From a virus: 22,709 nucleotides of DNA. The stretch spans positions 1 to 22,709 of the IMG/VR virus record IMGVR_UViG_3300008259_002435; one strand, given 5' to 3'. A program made the position numbers and the translations under genes. Shown here piece by piece: positions 1,620-17,522 of this stretch. Each line of letters opens with the position of its first letter. Position 1 is the stretch's first letter. The notes under the pieces are model-generated. The model ran no database searches. It had not been told where the DNA came from and saw only the letters and a program-made list of their open reading frames with translations.

Positions 1620-3167
1620 TTAGCTCATCACCGCAAAGAACGGTAAAGGAGCGACAAATTCATCGTGGTCACGTATCCGATTTTCTAAATCAAAATGATA
1701 ATCACTTAATTGCTGTAACATACGTGTTACCAATAAACTTGCCATAATCAAATCGTCTGTATCACCAATTTTAGCCGCATAACTACCACCGTGTGCTACA
1801 AATGCTTTTAATTCACTGATAAGACTACGACTATTTATGGTCATTTTCTTACTTTCAACTAGTGTTTTGAACTTAGCACAGCTTGCCAATTTGCTCTTGT
1901 TAGTTGTATTAAACCCTCTACGACCTTTGCCTGTTTCACTGATAAAGATACCCGGGATACCTGATTCACCATATTCATTTAATGAGACAATGGCGGCTTC
2001 TCCGATACCATTACATTCAATGCTGTAATAGATGTTGTTAGGTTCTCCGGTGCATTCTGCTATGTACTTGTTAATCTGAGACAATAATTTGATTTGACTT
2101 GGAATGTCGGTTTTATTGTGCTTCCATTCACCGATCTGTTTAGTAGTATTTGCTTCAAAGATTTGAATAGCAGCCGGGTCACCACCTGTACCCAAACTTG
2201 GATCTAACCCTACACAATAAATATTACCTTTGGTAGGAGTGTCATACCAACGAACTTGTCCAATACGACTAACAGGTTCGATGCCCTCCATAGCTATCAA
2301 TGTATTTGGATTAATAAGTGTTTCGTCTGCAATAATAAATTCGCAACCAATCTCTCGGTTAAAACGATCCTCACCAAGCTGTGATTTCATTTCGGCTGCC
2401 CACTTATCATCTCTGCCGGGTTGTTCGCTCCAATGCGCTCTGTATGCTCTGAATCCATTAATTCCTACTTCAGTAGTGTTGCCAAAATCATCTTCTGTTT
2501 TGTTAGCACCTTTCCAAATGAAGGCAAACTGATCCTCATCACTATTTGGAGTACTTGTAATAATTGCTTTACCACCAGTTGATAGTGTTGGGGTGATAGC
2601 TGTCCAAAATTCTTTAGCGATGCTTGGTCTAACGAATGCAAACTCGTCCAAGTATAATAGTGTAATAGACATACCACGACCTGTATTTTCAGTTGTAGTA
2701 GCTGAAACTATACGAGATCCGTTCTCAAAGTCTAATGAACCTTTGTTGTATGTTGTTACACCTGCTTTAATGTGATCGGGACAGTTCTCATATGCATAGC
2801 GTATTCGTTGCATAATCTCCTGAGCACCTGTATACTTGTGTGCCGCAACTAAGATAGTACTGTCTGGAACAAACATGGCATACCAGAGTAAGTATCCTGC
2901 GGCTGAAGTTGATTTACCTGACTGCCGAGGCATTAAGCTAATAGAGTAACGATAGTTGTGATATGTTTCAATCAATCGTTTTTGATAAGCCCAAGGATGA
3001 TAGACCATACTCCCTTTAGTAGGGTGTTGTATCATAAAGAAGTTATCCATAAAATATAGATAACCTGTATCTGGGTCACAGCATTTAATAAAATCCTGTA
3101 GTTCTTTATCAGTTTTGAAAACTGTTTTAGTATAGGGATTCTTTACTAGTGATGGTGCATTACTCAT
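1620..3167 (-). CDS. Terminase large subunit (T4 gp17-like)
   Basis: This is the DNA packaging motor: an ATPase that drives DNA into the prohead, joined to a nuclease that cuts concatemers. The 515 residues show a Walker A motif PRQSGKST at 80-87, a Walker B segment LLYLDEF at about 170-176, an ATPase coupling region ITSTPNS near 203-209, and the RNase H-like nuclease starting at GLDPSLGTGGD (320-330), with further acidic residues in SIECNG and the C-terminal GDTDDLIMAS. T4 gp17 is about 610 residues, so this version is somewhat shorter but carries both domains. It has no visible ribosome binding site; an ACTAAATA late-promoter-like motif lies 6 bases before the ATG. No small terminase subunit is recognised in the window. 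Confidence 0.96.
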   Translation of the reverse strand: MSNAPSLVKNPYTKTVFKTDKELQDFIKCCDPDTGYLYFMDNFFMIQHPTKGSMVYHPWAYQKRLIETYHNYRYSISLMPRQSGKSTSAAGYLLWYAMFVPDSTILVAAHKYTGAQEIMQRIRYAYENCPDHIKAGVTTYNKGSLDFENGSRIVSATTTENTGRGMSITLLYLDEFAFVRPSIAKEFWTAITPTLSTGGKAIITSTPNSDEDQFAFIWKGANKTEDDFGNTTEVGINGFRAYRAHWSEQPGRDDKWAAEMKSQLGEDRFNREIGCEFIIADETLINPNTLIAMEGIEPVSRIGQVRWYDTPTKGNIYCVGLDPSLGTGGDPAAIQIFEANTTKQIGEWKHNKTDIPSQIKLLSQINKYIAECTGEPNNIYYSIECNGIGEAAIVSLNEYGESGIPGIFISETGKGRRGFNTTNKSKLASCAKFKTLVESKKMTINSRSLISELKAFVAHGGSYAAKIGDTDDLIMASLLVTRMLQQLSDYHFDLENRIRDHDEFVAPLPFFAVMS

Positions 3168-3868: not shown

Positions 3869-4558
3869 TTATTTAATGTCTAACGGTCTTGCTTTGGTGA
3901 CCATAATACAGTAGAACTTCTCTTTTGCTGTATATTCCTCACCTTGCTCATTTTTACCTTGAATATCAAAAGCTAAGTTATTGAACACATCAATATTAAA
4001 GCCACAACGTGTGATTAATGCGGCTAATTGTTGCTCGCCAAAAATACTATAGTGATTCAAATTCCATTCGTGTTTACGGTCACAGTCGGGAGCAGGAACT
4101 TCAATGTAAAGTTTGCCGCCTTGTTTCAATAGACGATTGTATTCCATCAAACTAAAGATAGGATATGGGCTATGTTCTAATGCGTGACGTAAGAAAATGA
4201 AGTCTACGCTTTCATCAAAATATCCGTCTTGTTGTGGAATAAAACTCAAATCATATTTTGCAATTTTATGACCCTTACTTTCACAGATTTGAATGTCGCC
4301 AGGACTTAATGTAACTCCGGTAACATTCGTGTATTCACGCTCTTTCATTCCATCTAGGAAGTAACCAGGGCCACAACCTAAATCTAAGATTTTAGCATCT
4401 TTGGGTAAATTTAGCGGGTCTATGTATTTTGTAATAACCTCTTTGGTGAGATTTTCATGCATCGGACTAACGCCCTCATCATAGATATGTGCTGTGTACA
4501 ACCATTCGTTGTAGAATTTTAACTTGAGTAAGTCGAGGGTGTTGTTAATGTCAATCAT
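3869..4558 (-). CDS. Class I SAM-dependent methyltransferase
   Basis: The 229-residue protein has the SAM-binding motif ILDLGCGPG at 57-65, a following acidic/hydrophobic strand TGVTLSP, and FIFLRHALEHSPYP at about 119-132, the pattern of the Methyltransf_11 type. The LKQGGKLYIEVP segment near 145-156 is the usual post-motif of this fold. Substrate is not shown; EHS-type enzymes of this kind often act on small molecules, lipids or glycans. The N-terminal 50 residues, with LYTAHIYDEGVSPMHENLT, look like a substrate lid. An AGGAA ribosome binding site lies 5 bases before the ATG. The next gene, the P-loop-like protein, follows after 6 bases, so the two are probably made together. Confidence 0.9.
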   Translation of the reverse strand: MIDINNTLDLLKLKFYNEWLYTAHIYDEGVSPMHENLTKEVITKYIDPLNLPKDAKILDLGCGPGYFLDGMKEREYTNVTGVTLSPGDIQICESKGHKIAKYDLSFIPQQDGYFDESVDFIFLRHALEHSPYPIFSLMEYNRLLKQGGKLYIEVPAPDCDRKHEWNLNHYSIFGEQQLAALITRCGFNIDVFNNLAFDIQGKNEQGEEYTAKEKFYCIMVTKARPLDIK

Positions 4559-4582: not shown

Positions 4583-4846
4583 TTACTTATTCTCAAAAAG
4601 CATATCTTGTTCTTCTTTAGTGTAAGGATGTGCAGTGTTGTGTTTACCTACCCAACTTTCAGCAGGCATGTTGATTGGATTTATTCCATCACTACTTGCT
4701 ACAGCCATCATTAAACGATTTAAATCATATTGTCTATCATAGCTGTCTATTTTCTTTGAAAAAATATTTAAACCGCGGGTAGATTGTTGTTGATGTTTAG
4801 TTATTTTGCCAACTTTGGATTCGGATATAAATTCATTTGCTCTCAT
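4583..4846 (-). CDS. Small phage protein with T4-like capsid-targeting N-terminus
   Basis: The 87-residue protein starts MRANEFISES, which closely matches the capsid-targeting peptide of T4 internal proteins (MKTYQEFIAEA). The T4 prohead protease cuts after (L/I)-x-E; here that would be after ISE, residue 9. The remainder is hydrophilic, with YDLNRLMMAVASSDG (about 40-54) and AESWVGKHNTAHPYTKEEQDML (split here as AESWVGKHNT and AHPYTKEEQDML, about 62-83), a pattern I recall from other freshwater T4-like phage proteins. It overlaps the upstream gene by four bases (ATGA), and AAGGGA, lying inside that gene, could serve as ribosome binding site. A role as a protein packaged in the head and possibly injected is inference. 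Confidence 0.82.
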   Translation of the reverse strand: MRANEFISESKVGKITKHQQQSTRGLNIFSKKIDSYDRQYDLNRLMMAVASSDGINPINMPAESWVGKHNTAHPYTKEEQDMLFENK

Positions 4847-5247
4847 CGTTTATATCCCTTAAAGCCTTTTATTGGTGATTGTGTTAATGTGTCATCCATC
4901 TCATCACTTCCAGGGGTACTGACTGATTTTTTACCAGACTTACCTATCTTAGCCAATGCTTTATCAATTAATTCACCTACACCAGAATCCATTGAACTAA
5001 CAATTTGATGTTCACCCCAAGTACTAGCCGCTCTGAACTCAGGTTCATTGCCGTTATGAACCCCATCTTTTATCCCACTCTCACCTCTTACGGCTGCAAT
5101 TGCTACACCAAATCTATACAACTCATAAAAGTCTTGATTTTGTAATGAAGGTATAATATAAGTATTAGGAAGTGACTTATCTACTACATCTAATCCATCA
5201 TGCACGTCCTGTAGCTTTTGCTCGGTTATAAATTCTTTAGCTCTCAT
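4843..5247 (-). CDS. Small phage protein with T4-like capsid-targeting N-terminus
   Basis: The 134-residue protein starts MRAKEFITEQ, nearly the same leader as the next gene and again with an I-T-E site suited to a T4-type prohead protease. The central YELYRFGVAIAAVRGESG resembles YDLNRLMMAVASSDG of the downstream protein, so the two may be distant paralogues beyond the leader. The C-terminus SPIKGFKGYKR is a conserved ending I recall from related phage proteins. No transmembrane segment is visible. The gene starts one base after the stop of the upstream gene and overlaps the downstream one by ATGA, so all three are probably translated from the same message. Function unknown; internal head protein is the favoured idea. 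Confidence 0.82.
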   Translation of the reverse strand: MRAKEFITEQKLQDVHDGLDVVDKSLPNTYIIPSLQNQDFYELYRFGVAIAAVRGESGIKDGVHNGNEPEFRAASTWGEHQIVSSMDSGVGELIDKALAKIGKSGKKSVSTPGSDEMDDTLTQSPIKGFKGYKR

Positions 5248-5248
5248 G

Positions 5249-5827
5249 TTAACTTGCTTCAGTGGTTATTTCAAATTCATCTTCGGTATCCATTACTGAA
5301 TCAGTATATCCATCTAATGCAATATTTAATCCGTTTTCGGTATCACCAATGAAAGTTATCTGTGCTGAAATAAAGTGTAGTAACACTTGGTCTACAATAG
5401 GATTAACCATTAGACGAACATTACCATTACTGAAGTTATTATTAATCTTCTCAAATGCAGTGCGTAGTGGGTCACCGGTCCCGTCATTCGGTGTAGCACC
5501 TACATTGATATATTCTTGGTTGTAATAAGGTCCAATTGGTTGCGTAAATGTTAACATTAACGCAGTAGGATCTTCTTGTATTGCAGGAACTGATGACCCT
5601 AAGTAGATATTGTTGGCATTAATAGTAATATTGCCAGAGAAATTTGAATTACTAGAGTTTGAACTATCATCAGGGAATTGACTAGGATCAACTAACTCAA
5701 TACTGGCTGCGGGAGCTAATGCAAACAAGTTTGCAAAATTATTATTAATTTTGTCAAAGGCTAAGCGAAGAGGATCACCTGATCCGTCATTTGGCACTTC
5801 GCCTGTATCAATGATTTGCTGTGTCAT
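5249..5827 (-). CDS. Phage protein with two NDGTGD repeat modules (structural candidate)
   Basis: The 192 residues contain two copies of a module of about 29 residues, at 5-34 and 106-134, each with the pattern (I)xxGxxPNDGxGDPLRxAFxKINNNF. This module is common in tail-fibre, neck and related virion proteins of T4-like phages of aquatic bacteria. Between the copies lies a low-complexity Ser/Asn stretch (55-66) and a beta-rich region. The C-terminus is beta-rich and acidic. A GATAAATA late promoter lies upstream, and AGGGA before the ATG is a plausible ribosome binding site, so this gene has a normal short leader. A virion role is inferred from the module; the exact structure is not shown. 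Confidence 0.85.
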   Translation of the reverse strand: MTQQIIDTGEVPNDGSGDPLRLAFDKINNNFANLFALAPAASIELVDPSQFPDDSSNSSNSNFSGNITINANNIYLGSSVPAIQEDPTALMLTFTQPIGPYYNQEYINVGATPNDGTGDPLRTAFEKINNNFSNGNVRLMVNPIVDQVLLHFISAQITFIGDTENGLNIALDGYTDSVMDTEDEFEITTEAS

Positions 5828-12580: not shown

Positions 12581-13849
12581 TTATTGTAGTGTAGCGTAAC
12601 CCCATGGCTTACTAAAGTAAAAATTTAATGTTTTTTGGGCATCTAAATTATTAGCTAAAGTAGATCCATAAGCATAATAATAGTATACTGGGTTGTTTGG
12701 ACTTGGATTACTAAAGTGTTTATCTTCAAGCCACGGGGAGAATTCATTCAATATAATCCCATCGGTTATGTCTGATAATTTTAGTCCCATCATTTCAAAA
12801 AATGCCTGTATTTTTAATAATTGCATAGTGTTAGTAAATGATACGTTTGTATTAGTAGCTGACAAATTTCCAGTTTCCATCAGCCCATAGAAATCCGGTG
12901 GATCCATACCGACACCGGTATCCGCTATTTTTGGCATAATTTCTAACATTATTTTTTTACCATAAGTTGAGTGTATATTCTTTATTATTGCAACTTGATC
13001 TTGGCCGTGTATATCATTATGATATAAGTTAACAATAGATTTTAAATCTGTCACTGGAGTTTTTGACAATCCACCAAGTAAGATTAAATTGACATAATCA
13101 ACATAATTCCAAATTTTAGTTTGATGCAATAAACATCCAGTGTATCCAAGTTTACCACTGAATACTGTTCTAATACTATCAGCTAGTTGTTTCCAATAAG
13201 GCATGTCAATATCAGATTCCATATTCCAATTACATTCACTAATAAAGATACCATCAACTTTATGTTTTTGTGCAGTAGCGGCTATCGGTTTATCAAATTC
13301 AATAATATTATTAAACATGTACTGACGAGTATAGTTATTATAATTAGGAGTGAACATCATGTCAGTAATACTATCAGATATCTGCAATGATATCCAAACC
13401 TTTAATCCTTGACTTTTAGCATAATCAACAAGTTTCCACAAATCTTTGGGAGGTGTTTTAATGACAGAGTATAATTCAAGTGAGTCGGTTGTACTAATTT
13501 TTCCAGTTACTGAATTAACAGACACTTGCACCGTAAAGATAATTCCATTAAAACCAATAGATTTAATATTATCAATCATGGGTGCCACTACGTTGTATGA
13601 ACTAGTGTGGTGACCTTTATTATTTAAAGAAGAGGTTGGTGTATCAAATCTGTAATCTATTCTTGCTAAACGTAACTTTCCTGCAGGAATTATTGCAGGA
13701 GCATTAAATTGATGTACTGGTTGAGTTACTGATTGGGGTATTATTACCTGAGGACTAATATTTGGCGCATTATTATCGCCACCCCCACCGCAACCTGTTA
13801 ATAGTGCAAGTAAAAGTAATAGACTAACTGAGAGTTTTTTTAAGACCAT
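12581..13849 (-). CDS. Lipoprotein resembling a TIM-barrel glycoside hydrolase
   Basis: The 422 residues start with a signal peptide (VSLLLLLALLTGC) with lipobox LTGC at Cys 20, followed by GGGGD, then a Pro/Gln-rich linker to about residue 55. The rest alternates strands and helices like a (beta/alpha)8 barrel: LRLARIDYRF, IGFNGIIFTVQVS, GLKVWISLQIS, VDGIFISECNWN (Glu 205 as possible acid/base), LGYTGCLLHQ, KIMLEIMPKIAD and DGIILNEFSPWLED (possible second Glu near 377). This resembles GH113-like and related families, but I cannot assign one. Gly/Ser-rich mature N-termini of this kind are usual in betaproteobacteria. It overlaps the upstream gene by 10 bases. It is unusual in a T4-like phage and may be host-derived. 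Confidence 0.8.
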   Translation of the reverse strand: MVLKKLSVSLLLLLALLTGCGGGGDNNAPNISPQVIIPQSVTQPVHQFNAPAIIPAGKLRLARIDYRFDTPTSSLNNKGHHTSSYNVVAPMIDNIKSIGFNGIIFTVQVSVNSVTGKISTTDSLELYSVIKTPPKDLWKLVDYAKSQGLKVWISLQISDSITDMMFTPNYNNYTRQYMFNNIIEFDKPIAATAQKHKVDGIFISECNWNMESDIDMPYWKQLADSIRTVFSGKLGYTGCLLHQTKIWNYVDYVNLILLGGLSKTPVTDLKSIVNLYHNDIHGQDQVAIIKNIHSTYGKKIMLEIMPKIADTGVGMDPPDFYGLMETGNLSATNTNVSFTNTMQLLKIQAFFEMMGLKLSDITDGIILNEFSPWLEDKHFSNPSPNNPVYYYYAYGSTLANNLDAQKTLNFYFSKPWGYATLQ

Positions 13850-15045: not shown

Positions 15046-16332
15046 TTATCTTTCGTCATATATTGCGTAAGTACCGAATGGGGGATTCGGATTCTTATCA
15101 CCATGAATGACCCAAGTTGTGTCGCAGTAATCTGGGTCACCCCAACTACCACAAGGATAACCGTCAGTAAAGCAAATCAGTCGCTTAGGTACATTGCCTA
15201 CTTTCTTCAAGTATTCAAAGATAGCATCAAAGTCTGTACCACCGCCACCTTGGGGTTCGTATGTGTCGATACCATCCATGTTCTCTGAATTAAAGTCTTG
15301 TGGATTATAGATTTCAGTATCAAAACAGAATACGTGAACCTTGTAACCATCAAACGCATCCATCATGCCACCGATCTCACCCAAGAATTGTTGTGCTTGT
15401 TTGTCACTAATAGAACCACTCATGTCAATAGCAACGACAACATCAATTTCTTCTCCGGGAGTCATGCCGGGCATTATAGCATCCATATGCCAACCTCTAC
15501 GTGAGGGACGCATCCAACTATAGTCAGTACGAATTGCACTTGTCAAGTTAGTTTGAATCAATTCACGCCAGGGCATGACTGGGTCAGTAGCTTGACGAAT
15601 CAATCGTTCAACACCTGCGGGCAATGACCCTGCTTCTGCTGTACTTGAAGCATTGATAATAGCTTGCTTAACTTCCTGACGAATACGTTCTTTTTCTTCA
15701 TCAGATAATTGAGGGCGACCTTTACCATTGCCTTTACTATTGCCATCTTCACCGTCACCCTCACCTTCACCATCTTCACTATCAAGGTGCTCGTCAAGCA
15801 ATTGCTCAATCAAATCATCAATGCTGATTTTCTTAACATTCTTCATCAAGTCATCATATACTTCCTCAGCCGATTTACCATCATACTTTTGTTCATACAA
15901 GCAAGGCACTGTAGTAATGAATTGACCAATCTTGTGACGTTTCAAGTCAGCATTGACACAATAGTCATCAGCGATATTCCAGATTTGTGGGTCACGATCA
16001 CCTCTACGACCCATGTGATCGTACACAACGTGAAGGACCTCATGTGCTACCAAGAATTCAACTTCCTTAGGCTTCAACATCATAATGAAGCGGCTATTGT
16101 AATAGAACTTCTGACCATCAGTTGCCGCTGTAGCACACCATTCGTCTGCATTGATAAGTGTCAATCGTGTAGCAAGATTACCGAAAAACGAATGACGCAA
16201 TAACAGACCAATACGTGCTGTTACCAAACGCTCACGTGCTAGGTGATCGACCTTAGAATCAGTAGGTCCTACTAGATTCTCAAGTTTTTTACTACGCTTG
16301 CGCTTTTTAGTGGGATTCAGTACTTCGCTCAT
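15046..16332 (-). CDS. Metallopeptidase-like/VWA protein, partner of MoxR ATPase
   Basis: The 428 residues contain two domains. The N-terminal one (about 25-170) has HEVLH at 97-101, a zinc-binding HExxH, in FLVAHEVLHVVYDH, and matches the putative metallopeptidase part of DUF2201-type proteins. After an acidic, Gly-rich linker (183-205) comes a helical part and a VWA-like domain starting at VVVAIDMSGS, with the metal-site DxSxS at 303-307 and GGGGTDF and FTDGYP further on. The basic start (KKRKRSKKLE) is notable. Such proteins are usually coded beside a MoxR ATPase, as here. The gene has its own sigma70-type promoter and an AAAGGA ribosome binding site. The target of the complex is unknown. 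Confidence 0.9.
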   Translation of the reverse strand: MSEVLNPTKKRKRSKKLENLVGPTDSKVDHLARERLVTARIGLLLRHSFFGNLATRLTLINADEWCATAATDGQKFYYNSRFIMMLKPKEVEFLVAHEVLHVVYDHMGRRGDRDPQIWNIADDYCVNADLKRHKIGQFITTVPCLYEQKYDGKSAEEVYDDLMKNVKKISIDDLIEQLLDEHLDSEDGEGEGDGEDGNSKGNGKGRPQLSDEEKERIRQEVKQAIINASSTAEAGSLPAGVERLIRQATDPVMPWRELIQTNLTSAIRTDYSWMRPSRRGWHMDAIMPGMTPGEEIDVVVAIDMSGSISDKQAQQFLGEIGGMMDAFDGYKVHVFCFDTEIYNPQDFNSENMDGIDTYEPQGGGGTDFDAIFEYLKKVGNVPKRLICFTDGYPCGSWGDPDYCDTTWVIHGDKNPNPPFGTYAIYDER

Positions 16333-16357
16333 ATTAGTCCTTTAGTGTTTATGTGTT

Positions 16358-16386
16358 ATTGTAGCACACTTCTGCTTTATTGTCAA
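16358..16386 (-). promoter_or_regulatory. Sigma70-type promoter of the VWA gene
   Basis: TTGACA (16381-16386), 17-base spacer, TACAAT (16358-16363). The predicted start near 16351 leaves a leader of about 19 bases that contains AAAGGA. The bases after the -35 hexamer, ATAAA, are shared with three other promoters in the window. Confidence 0.85.
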
Positions 16387-16412
16387 GGGTGAGCATATTG
16401 CTACACTCACCC
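16387..16412 (-). repeat. Inverted repeat between MoxR stop and promoter
   Basis: GGGTGAG and its complement CTCACCC form 7-base arms (16387-16393 and 16406-16412) around a 12-base loop, directly upstream of the -35 hexamer and just after the MoxR stop codon. There is no T-run, so it is a weak terminator candidate; it could be an operator or an RNA-processing hairpin. Confidence 0.55.
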
Positions 16413-16418
16413 ATTTTC

Positions 16419-17522
16419 TTACTCACCTGCTTGTACAATGTACTTGCCGTATTTCTTGTGAAACTCATCAAAGTTCTTCAATTGTGAAGGTTCAATCGGC
16501 AACTTGTAAGTCTTAAGTGCAATCTTTGCACCCATCACAACCAACTCAGTCTCAAAGTTTGCCATGATGTAGTTAAAGAAGTTGTCAGCCATTTCGTGGA
16601 ACTTCTTAGAATCCACTTTCTTGTTTTCAAGTGCATCACGCAATTCATAGCACATTGAAATAGTCAATGAGTACATTGCTGAGATTTCCTTGACTGCAAG
16701 GTCCTTAACTTTACCTGACAAGATATCAGATGGTTCGGGCATCTTGCCTGCAATCTTACGGTGTGCCGCAAACTTAACTGCAAGACCTTCACCGACTGCA
16801 CCTGCTACCAAGTTGAACAATGTGTCAGTATCAATACCAGCTTCATCATCAAGCAAGTCACTTACGAAACACCAGCTACGTGGTGTAGCAAATGCACGTG
16901 AAGCCGATTTACTATCAAAGTCATACAAGTCTTGTTTAGCAAAAGACAGATAACCTACAACGTCTTTGTGAATGCCTTTATTCACAGCCCAGTTCTGCCA
17001 TGATGTAAAGTCGGCTCGCATTTCTAAGTGTAAGAAACGATTAGCGAGGGGCATCGGCATACGATATGTAACACCTTTGTCACTATCACGATTACCTGCC
17101 GCTACAATAACAACATTGTCAGGTAACTTATACTTACCAACTCTACGATTCAAAATCAATTGATAACCAGCCGCTTGAACAGCAGGGGGTGCCGAATTCA
17201 TTTCATCTAAGAATAGAACAACGATCGGGAATTGACTTGCAAATTCGTCATCAGGCAAGTCAACTGGTGCCGCCCAGTCCATCTTGTTAATGTCTTTGTT
17301 AAAGAATGGGATACCACGAATGTCAGTAGGCTCCATTTGTGCCATACGTAAGTCAATTACGTGGCCTTTGAGTTCGTCAGCAACTTCCTGAACAACTTCA
17401 GATTTGCCGATGCCGGGAGGTCCCCACAAGAATACGGGACGTTTTGCTTTGAAAGCGGCAAGTATTGCCTTGCGTGTTTGTACAGAGGTAATTGTCAGAT
17501 TGTCAGAAACTTGCGATGCCAT
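16419..17522 (-). CDS. MoxR-type AAA+ ATPase
   Basis: The 367-residue protein has Walker A GPPGIGKS at 34-41, Walker B VVLFLDEMN at 101-109 and sensor 1 VIVAAGNRD near 139-147, followed by the arginine-containing LANRFLHLEM. The segment MEPTDIRGIPFF (63-74) is the MoxR-type insertion region. MoxR ATPases remodel or activate protein complexes together with VWA-domain partners; here the partner is the next gene downstream. The related CobS ATPase of cyanophages has similar appearance, so a CobS-like label is possible. An AGGAG site lies 6 bases before the ATG, and two tandem sigma70-type promoters lie upstream. Not coupled to its partner by overlap: an 86-base gap with another promoter separates them. 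Confidence 0.92.
   Translation of the reverse strand: MASQVSDNLTITSVQTRKAILAAFKAKRPVFLWGPPGIGKSEVVQEVADELKGHVIDLRMAQMEPTDIRGIPFFNKDINKMDWAAPVDLPDDEFASQFPIVVLFLDEMNSAPPAVQAAGYQLILNRRVGKYKLPDNVVIVAAGNRDSDKGVTYRMPMPLANRFLHLEMRADFTSWQNWAVNKGIHKDVVGYLSFAKQDLYDFDSKSASRAFATPRSWCFVSDLLDDEAGIDTDTLFNLVAGAVGEGLAVKFAAHRKIAGKMPEPSDILSGKVKDLAVKEISAMYSLTISMCYELRDALENKKVDSKKFHEMADNFFNYIMANFETELVVMGAKIALKTYKLPIEPSQLKNFDEFHKKYGKYIVQAGE

What the first reader, a model, noticed from the sequence alone, without database searches (positions are those of the whole stretch)
4583..5247. Two small proteins with T4-type capsid-targeting leaders
MRANEFISES and MRAKEFITEQ match the MKTYQEFIAEA leader of T4 internal proteins, including the I-x-E site cut by the T4 prohead protease. 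The bodies differ, as expected when a shared leader addresses different cargo to the head. They could be ejected with the DNA to act on the host. The leader seems to define a cargo class that could be searched for.
Basis: partly seen in the sequence, partly recalled or inferred. Interest (0 to 1): 0.75.

Follow-up and report, generated by a model that had tools for sequence, protein, structure and literature searches.

The report
Capsid-targeting leader on phage cargo proteins
Two small genes in an uncultivated giant T4-type phage begin with a nine-residue address tag, nearly invariant across its relatives and also found on many unrelated phage proteins, that very probably packs the protein into the virus head and is then cut off; phage T4 uses the same trick, but here it carries a much wider set of cargo.

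Summary
ORF A (4843-5247, minus strand) and ORF B (4583-4846, minus strand) begin MRAKEFITE and MRANEFISE. In relatives with a matching terminase, essentially every complete copy starts MRAxEF[I/V/L]xE. Positions 1, 2, 3, 5, 6 and 9 are fixed, 4 and 8 are free, and codons vary synonymously. These positions match residues mapped by mutation in the T4 IPIII capsid-targeting sequence. Every leader-bearing relative of at least 150 kb encodes a T4 gp21-type protease (Peptidase_S77), and their capsid and scaffold proteins are rich in the same [IL]xE sites. The leader class is real: the same leader starts many unrelated proteins, including ADP-ribosyltransferase-like, GH19/LysM, ParB-like and DUF6321 proteins. 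A scrambled leader has only 19 matches in the whole viral collection, against at least 120 for the true one.

A and B are divergent paralogs, not unrelated cargo, and also share a C-terminal FKGYKR tail. B in this window has lost that tail through a ~142-base deletion.

Best reading: CTS-tagged internal head proteins, cut after Glu9, probably injected, fast-evolving and shuffled between lineages. Virion presence, cleavage and injection were not tested.

The parts
4843..5247 (-). ORF A, 134 aa, MRAKEFITE|QKLQ...FKGYKR; leader-bearing small protein, paralog of B
5221..5247 (-). Leader of ORF A (MRAKEFITE); predicted cut after Glu9, between bases 5221 and 5220
   Evidence: invariance in relatives; T4 CTS mutagenesis reported in PMC9026906
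4846..4863 (-). C-terminal tail FKGYKR of ORF A, shared with full-length B
   Evidence: 133 of 153 family members
4583..4846 (-). ORF B, 87 aa here, a truncated form of a 125-aa family (MRANEFISE|SKVG...); start overlaps stop of A (ATGA)
4820..4846 (-). Leader of ORF B (MRANEFISE); predicted cut after Glu9
4597..4599 (.). Junction of the ~142-base deletion that removes the C-terminal part of B relative to L001
1620..3167 (-). Large terminase subunit, T4 gp17 type, downstream in the same gene run; the anchor used to find relatives
   Evidence: Terminase_6N E 3e-16, phrog_36964 E 5e-106
5249..5827 (-). Tail gene with T4 gp9/10-like N-terminal repeats, directly upstream of A (late structural context)
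   Evidence: PF07880 and phrog_677
3869..4558 (-). Methyltransferase-like gene between B and the terminase; used as conservation control

Best explanation
A and B are internal head proteins of a T4-type jumbo phage. Their first nine residues (MRAxEF[IVL]xE) are a capsid-targeting sequence: the peptide binds the prohead core, the protein is enclosed when the shell forms, and the gp21-type protease cuts after Glu9, leaving mature proteins of about 13 kDa beside the DNA. Shown here: the leader, its conservation pattern, its spread over unrelated proteins, the protease and matching [IL]xE sites in the lineage, the paralogy of A and B, and their allelic shuffling. Inferred: packaging, cutting, injection with the DNA, and a role against host defences (most likely restriction, as for T4 IPI-III). 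The same leader defines a broader cargo class in these phages that includes ADP-ribosyltransferase-like proteins, the enzyme type of the T4 head protein Alt.
For: Leader invariance with free positions 4 and 8, P1 always Glu and P3 always I/V/L/M, and synonymous codon change at the fixed positions. T4 IPIII CTS MKTYQEFIAE: targeting at residues 4 and 7, processing at 8 and 10 (PMC9026906); T4 F7, I8 and E10 line up with F6, I7 and E9 here. Start-codon specificity: 16 of 1,263 genes against 0 of 5,687 internal Met; 60 pattern hits against 1 in the reversed control; scrambled pattern 19 in all IMG/VR against at least 120. Peptidase_S77 in G003-G005 and G008 (E 1e-27 to 1e-30) and in five more leader records of 151-353 kb. 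T4 head module in G005: portal gp20, S77, Gp23. Gp22-like scaffold 6.3-6.9 [ILV]xE per 100 aa against 1.3 in the proteome; capsid propeptide with four [IL]xE sites in 46 residues. Unrelated cargo with the same leader in 25 clusters, with ART-PolyVal E 5e-14, GH19, LysM, ParB_N. A body with its leader exchanged at the predicted cut: MKTNEFLTE|LSN against MSSILKGLQLNE|LSN. A and B evolve and shuffle unlike the terminase: at 92-98% terminase identity, median body identity is 47% (A) and 64% (B).
Against: No virion proteomics, cleavage or injection data exist for these phages. S77 is also present in jumbo isolates whose genomes gave no convincing leader match (PA5oct, CBB, Atu_ph07, Phosso, Vibrio 2.275), so the protease alone does not predict the leader. 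A is mildly acidic (pI 5.6), unlike the basic T4 internal proteins; B is basic (9.1). A/B are near-universal in this lineage beside the terminase, which is more core-like than T-even internal protein genes. Some cargo (GH19/LysM hydrolases) is not an obvious head protein.
Confidence: 0.84

Rival explanations
1. The leader targets the prohead and is cut, but A and B are structural or DNA-condensing core components and are not effectors that act in the host.
For: Nearly every relative has a pair or triplet beside the terminase; both families end in a basic FKGYKR(K) tail; B is basic.
Against: Bodies diverge far faster than the terminase and swap between lineages independently of each other, as expected of arms-race proteins; A is acidic.
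Confidence: 0.35
2. The N-terminus is conserved for another reason, such as a shared ribosome-binding or regulatory DNA element, or a signal for another compartment; the EFIxE likeness to T4 is coincidence.
For: No direct biochemical test; some leader proteins are peptidoglycan-hydrolase-like (GH19, LysM).
Against: Codons vary synonymously while residues stay fixed; no hydrophobic signal; the fixed residues match the T4 CTS processing rule; protease and matching sites are present; ART-type cargo as in T4 Alt.
Confidence: 0.08
3. A and B share the leader only because they are recent duplicates; the leader has no addressing role and marks one protein family.
For: A and B are paralogs.
Against: The same leader begins many families without detectable similarity, and the T4-type dialect MKTxxEFIxE does the same; one body is found with two different leaders joined at the predicted cut.
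Confidence: 0.04

Closest known systems
Phage T4 internal proteins IPI, IPII, IPIII and their capsid-targeting sequence (CTS)
   Same: Short N-terminal leader with E-F-I-x-E core, cut rule [L/I]-x-E, gp21-type protease in the genome, several small leader proteins per phage with fast-changing bodies (PMC9026906, PMC3012670, PMC12373910).
   Different: Leader dialect MRAxEFIxE (9 residues) in place of MKT[FY]xEFIxE (10); bodies unrelated to any T4 protein; A/B are paralogs next to the terminase, whereas T4 Ips share no homology beyond the leader.
T4 Alt, an ADP-ribosyltransferase packaged and injected with the DNA
   Same: Relatives of this phage carry leader-bearing ADP-ribosyltransferase-like proteins (ART-PolyVal).
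   Different: Small single-domain proteins of another ART family; not A or B themselves.
Polyvalent proteins (Iyer et al. 2017, PMC5512222)
   Same: Large leader-bearing proteins with ParB-like and zinc-motif segments, and separate leader-bearing ART-PolyVal proteins.
   Different: Here the address tag is a short T4-type leader, and segments are separated by QGVAEG linkers that fit the head protease rule.
Ejection proteins of SPN3US / phiKZ-type giant phages (PMC5694885)
   Same: Propeptides removed after Glu by a gp21-related protease before injection.
   Different: Their propeptides are mostly over 100 residues with an A-x-E (SPN3US) or S-x-E (phiKZ) motif; here the leader is 9 residues, T4-like.

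Membership tests
T4-type CTS-bearing internal head proteins | N-terminal leader of about 10-20 residues with E-F-I-x-E, ending in [IL]xE | tested here: met
   rule and residue mapping from PMC9026906
T4-type CTS-bearing internal head proteins | gp21-type prohead protease (Peptidase_S77) in the same genome | tested here: inconclusive
   Window is a fragment without the head module. Present in all eight leader-bearing relatives of at least 150 kb plus G003 (116 kb); absent from two fragments of 102 and 129 kb
T4-type CTS-bearing internal head proteins | Other head proteins of the lineage carry the same cut rule | tested here: met
   Capsid propeptide LLE/LLE/ILE/LAE sites, scaffold enriched about fivefold in [ILV]xE, in four relatives
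T4-type CTS-bearing internal head proteins | Leader shared by otherwise unrelated bodies | tested here: met
   Met for the class (25 clusters); not for the A/B pair itself, which are paralogs
T4-type CTS-bearing internal head proteins | Protein present in virions, cut after the leader Glu | not testable with these tools
   needs virion proteomics
T4-type CTS-bearing internal head proteins | Injected into the host with the DNA | not testable with these tools
   needs an injection assay
Homologs of T4 IPI, IPII or IPIII (body homology) | Sequence similarity of the mature body | tested here: not met
   No Pfam, PHROGs, NCBIfam or INPHARED match for A or B; no PDB fold match
Polyvalent proteins | Polyvalent-type domain in the protein | tested here: not met
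   No Pfam domain in A or B; other leader proteins in relatives do carry ART-PolyVal

The most novel reading that the evidence does not exclude
In these giant phages the leader addresses whole multi-domain polyproteins as well as single proteins to the head. The head protease would then cut them at repeated QGVAE|G linkers into separate effectors that are injected together, with domains added or exchanged by recombination at the linker.
Probability: 0.3. Interest if true: 0.75.

Novelty: new variant of a known kind. Interest (0 to 1): 0.6.

Why it matters
A nine-residue tag that can be read from sequence alone gives a way to list head cargo, and so candidate injected effectors, in hundreds of uncultivated phages where almost nothing is annotated. 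In T-even phages this tag has led to anti-restriction proteins. Here the tagged set is wider (ADP-ribosyltransferase-like, peptidoglycan hydrolase, ParB-like, DUF6321) and the tag is held fixed while the bodies are shuffled. I found no description of this dialect or of the A/B family in the papers and databases searched.

Tried and rejected
Function of A/B by homology: nothing in Pfam, PHROGs, NCBIfam, INPHARED. Fold comparison: AlphaFold2 models of only moderate quality (pLDDT 78, pTM 0.46) with no PDB match. Host by prophage or MAG hits: 31 leader-pattern matches in bacterial genomes but no A relative. Direct link to virion mass spectrometry through isolates: PA5oct carries ESI-MS/MS notes, but neither it nor the other jumbo isolates checked gave a convincing leader match. 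A looser leader pattern in isolates was too permissive to use. Chance resemblance rejected. A DNA-level regulatory signal rejected because codons vary synonymously. 'A and B carry unrelated cargo' rejected. Co-occurrence with S77 was not used as proof, because most T4-terminase phages have it.

Full report
Observation. Both ORFs exist at the stated places on the minus strand, overlapping by ATGA: A 4843-5247 and B 4583-4846. They lie in a late-type gene run between a tail gene with T4 gp9/10-like repeats (5249-5827) and a T4-type large terminase (1620-3167). The window is a 22.7-kb virus record. Its nearest isolates by terminase are jumbo phages (Phosso, PA5oct, Atu_ph07, GAP32; about 42-51% identity), but at least 599 uncultivated contigs matched a pattern and encode a relative, the best 80 of them at 82-100% identity.

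Is the leader more than chance? Fifty-nine of 81 sequences examined (80 terminase loci plus the window) contain leader-type ORFs, nearly all of them two or three A/B genes in a row upstream of the terminase. To avoid circularity I built HMMs from the bodies alone and looked at what precedes them: of 124 bodies, 116 have the leader, two are cut by contig ends, four have it behind a GTG start, one (L044) was a misplaced search window whose leader is seen, and one (L078) has a variant. Among the 113 nine-residue leaders, M1, R2, F6 and E9 never vary, A3 and E5 almost never, position 7 is I/V/L/M, and 4 and 8 are free. Codons at fixed positions vary synonymously, so selection is on the peptide. 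In four large relatives the strict motif follows the start Met in 16 of 1,263 genes and 0 of 5,687 internal Met. Many loci are close relatives, so these counts are not independent events.

Fit to the T4 capsid-targeting sequence. In T4 the first ten residues of IPIII suffice for packaging; targeting depends mainly on residues 4 and 7, processing on residues 8 and 10, and gp21 cuts after [L/I]-x-E (PMC9026906). T4 F7, I8, E10 correspond to F6, I7, E9 here, while the X of the T4 cut rule corresponds to free position 8. The pattern search recovered T4 ipII and ipIII, and also gp61.1; ipI reads MKTFKEFTSTTTPVSTITE|A, which agrees with the 76-residue mature form given in PMC3012670.

Protease and head module. 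Peptidase_S77 is found in G003 (116 kb), G004 (525 kb), G005 (264 kb), G008 (191 kb) at E 1e-27 to 1e-30 and in five further leader-bearing records of 151-353 kb; two records of 102 and 129 kb lack it and may be fragments. T4 itself was the positive control (E 4e-113). In G005 the protease lies between a gp68-like acidic protein and a gp22-like scaffold, next to a Gp23 capsid protein and a gp20 portal. The gp67/gp68/gp22 labels are by position and composition, not by a database match. The capsid propeptide holds four [IL]xE sites in 46 residues and the scaffold 6.3-6.9 [ILV]xE per 100 aa, against 1.3 in the proteome. So the protease of this lineage very likely has T4-like specificity. Jumbo isolates with S77 but no convincing leader match exist, so the protease is necessary for the idea but does not prove it.

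The cargo class. Leader-bearing proteins from 80 pattern loci plus four genomes fall into 25 single-linkage clusters after removal of the leader. Domains found: ART-PolyVal (L126:8078-8461, E 5e-14), GH19 chitinase-type hydrolases with or without LysM, a ParB_N segment, DUF6321, and weak GNAT matches. The T4 dialect MKTxxEFIxE likewise begins many different proteins in IMG/VR, several of them ADP-ribosyltransferase-like (L375 ART-PolyVal E 1e-23; L407, L421 weak). One body occurs with two different leaders joined exactly at the predicted cut, MKTNEFLTE|LSN and MSSILKGLQLNE|LSN.

A and B are paralogs. With leader and tail removed, A and B profiles align with probability 97.2%, E 3e-11, 19% identity over 103 columns, and 133 of 153 members end in an FxGY-type tail, FKGYKR(K) being typical. 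B in the window lacks this tail because of a ~142-base deletion relative to L001, which is otherwise 99.4-100% identical around it. Whether the deletion is natural or an assembly fault cannot be told.

What A and B may do. Their bodies change much faster than the terminase and are exchanged between lineages independently: at 92-98% terminase identity the medians are 47% for A and 64% for B, while some distant relatives have nearly the same B (L042, L037: about 90% at 85% terminase identity). The neighbouring methyltransferase gene keeps a median of 80%. This resembles T-even internal proteins, which are specific inhibitors of type IV restriction enzymes (PMC12373910). I put packaging and cutting at about 0.84, injection with action in the host at about 0.6, and a role against restriction or other defence at about 0.45. 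Structural models were of moderate confidence and matched nothing.

Polyprotein possibility. In G005 and G004 several large proteins contain in-frame QGVAE[GA] linkers between segments (up to five in 826 aa), and these genes lie next to leader genes (G005 P about 5e-5; G004 P about 0.02). VAE|G fits the protease rule with V in place of L/I. The shared nucleotide core also allows a simpler reading, spread of a recombination linker. No cleavage was tested.

Conclusion. This is a new dialect and a large extension, in uncultivated giant phages, of a known T4 mechanism, with a new conserved family (A/B). In the papers and databases searched I found no earlier description of this dialect; subscription journals and preprints are largely outside that library.

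Noticed in passing
G003, G004, G005, G008 (L115-L171), upstream of start codons: The T4-type late promoter core TAAATA ends exactly 4-5 nt before the start codon in 68 genes (control TATTTA: 1); 67 of 68 start with ATG and none has a Shine-Dalgarno-like site, against 88 of 138 for genes with TAAATA 16-27 nt away. This suggests late mRNAs that begin at the AUG (leaderless) in T4-type jumbo phages.
   Followed up: partly
L126:9971-12448 (G005 229968-232448) and L153:15621-19142 (G004 175621-179142): Large proteins with repeated in-frame QGVAE[GA] linkers of nearly identical DNA (CAAGGTGTGGCGGAAGGC) between segments resembling ParB-like and zinc-motif domains.
   Followed up: partly
L313:967-1131 (phage T4 gene 61.1): T4 gp61.1, annotated as hypothetical, begins MKTFKEFIKE, a CTS-like leader; it could be a further T4 internal protein.
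   Followed up: no
L323:2155-3519 (marine virus AG-345-E15): A DUF6321-type protein begins MKTFEQFTEG, a T4-like leader; in cyanophage P-TIM68 a related protein lies directly upstream of the terminase but lacks the leader.
   Followed up: no
window 15046-17522: MoxR-type AAA ATPase next to a DUF2201 metallopeptidase/VWA protein; the best PHROGs family of the latter is labelled HNH endonuclease, which its Pfam domains do not support.
   Followed up: no
window 12581-13849: Lipoprotein-like 422-aa protein with weak glycoside hydrolase GH113 similarity, unusual cargo for a phage.
   Followed up: no
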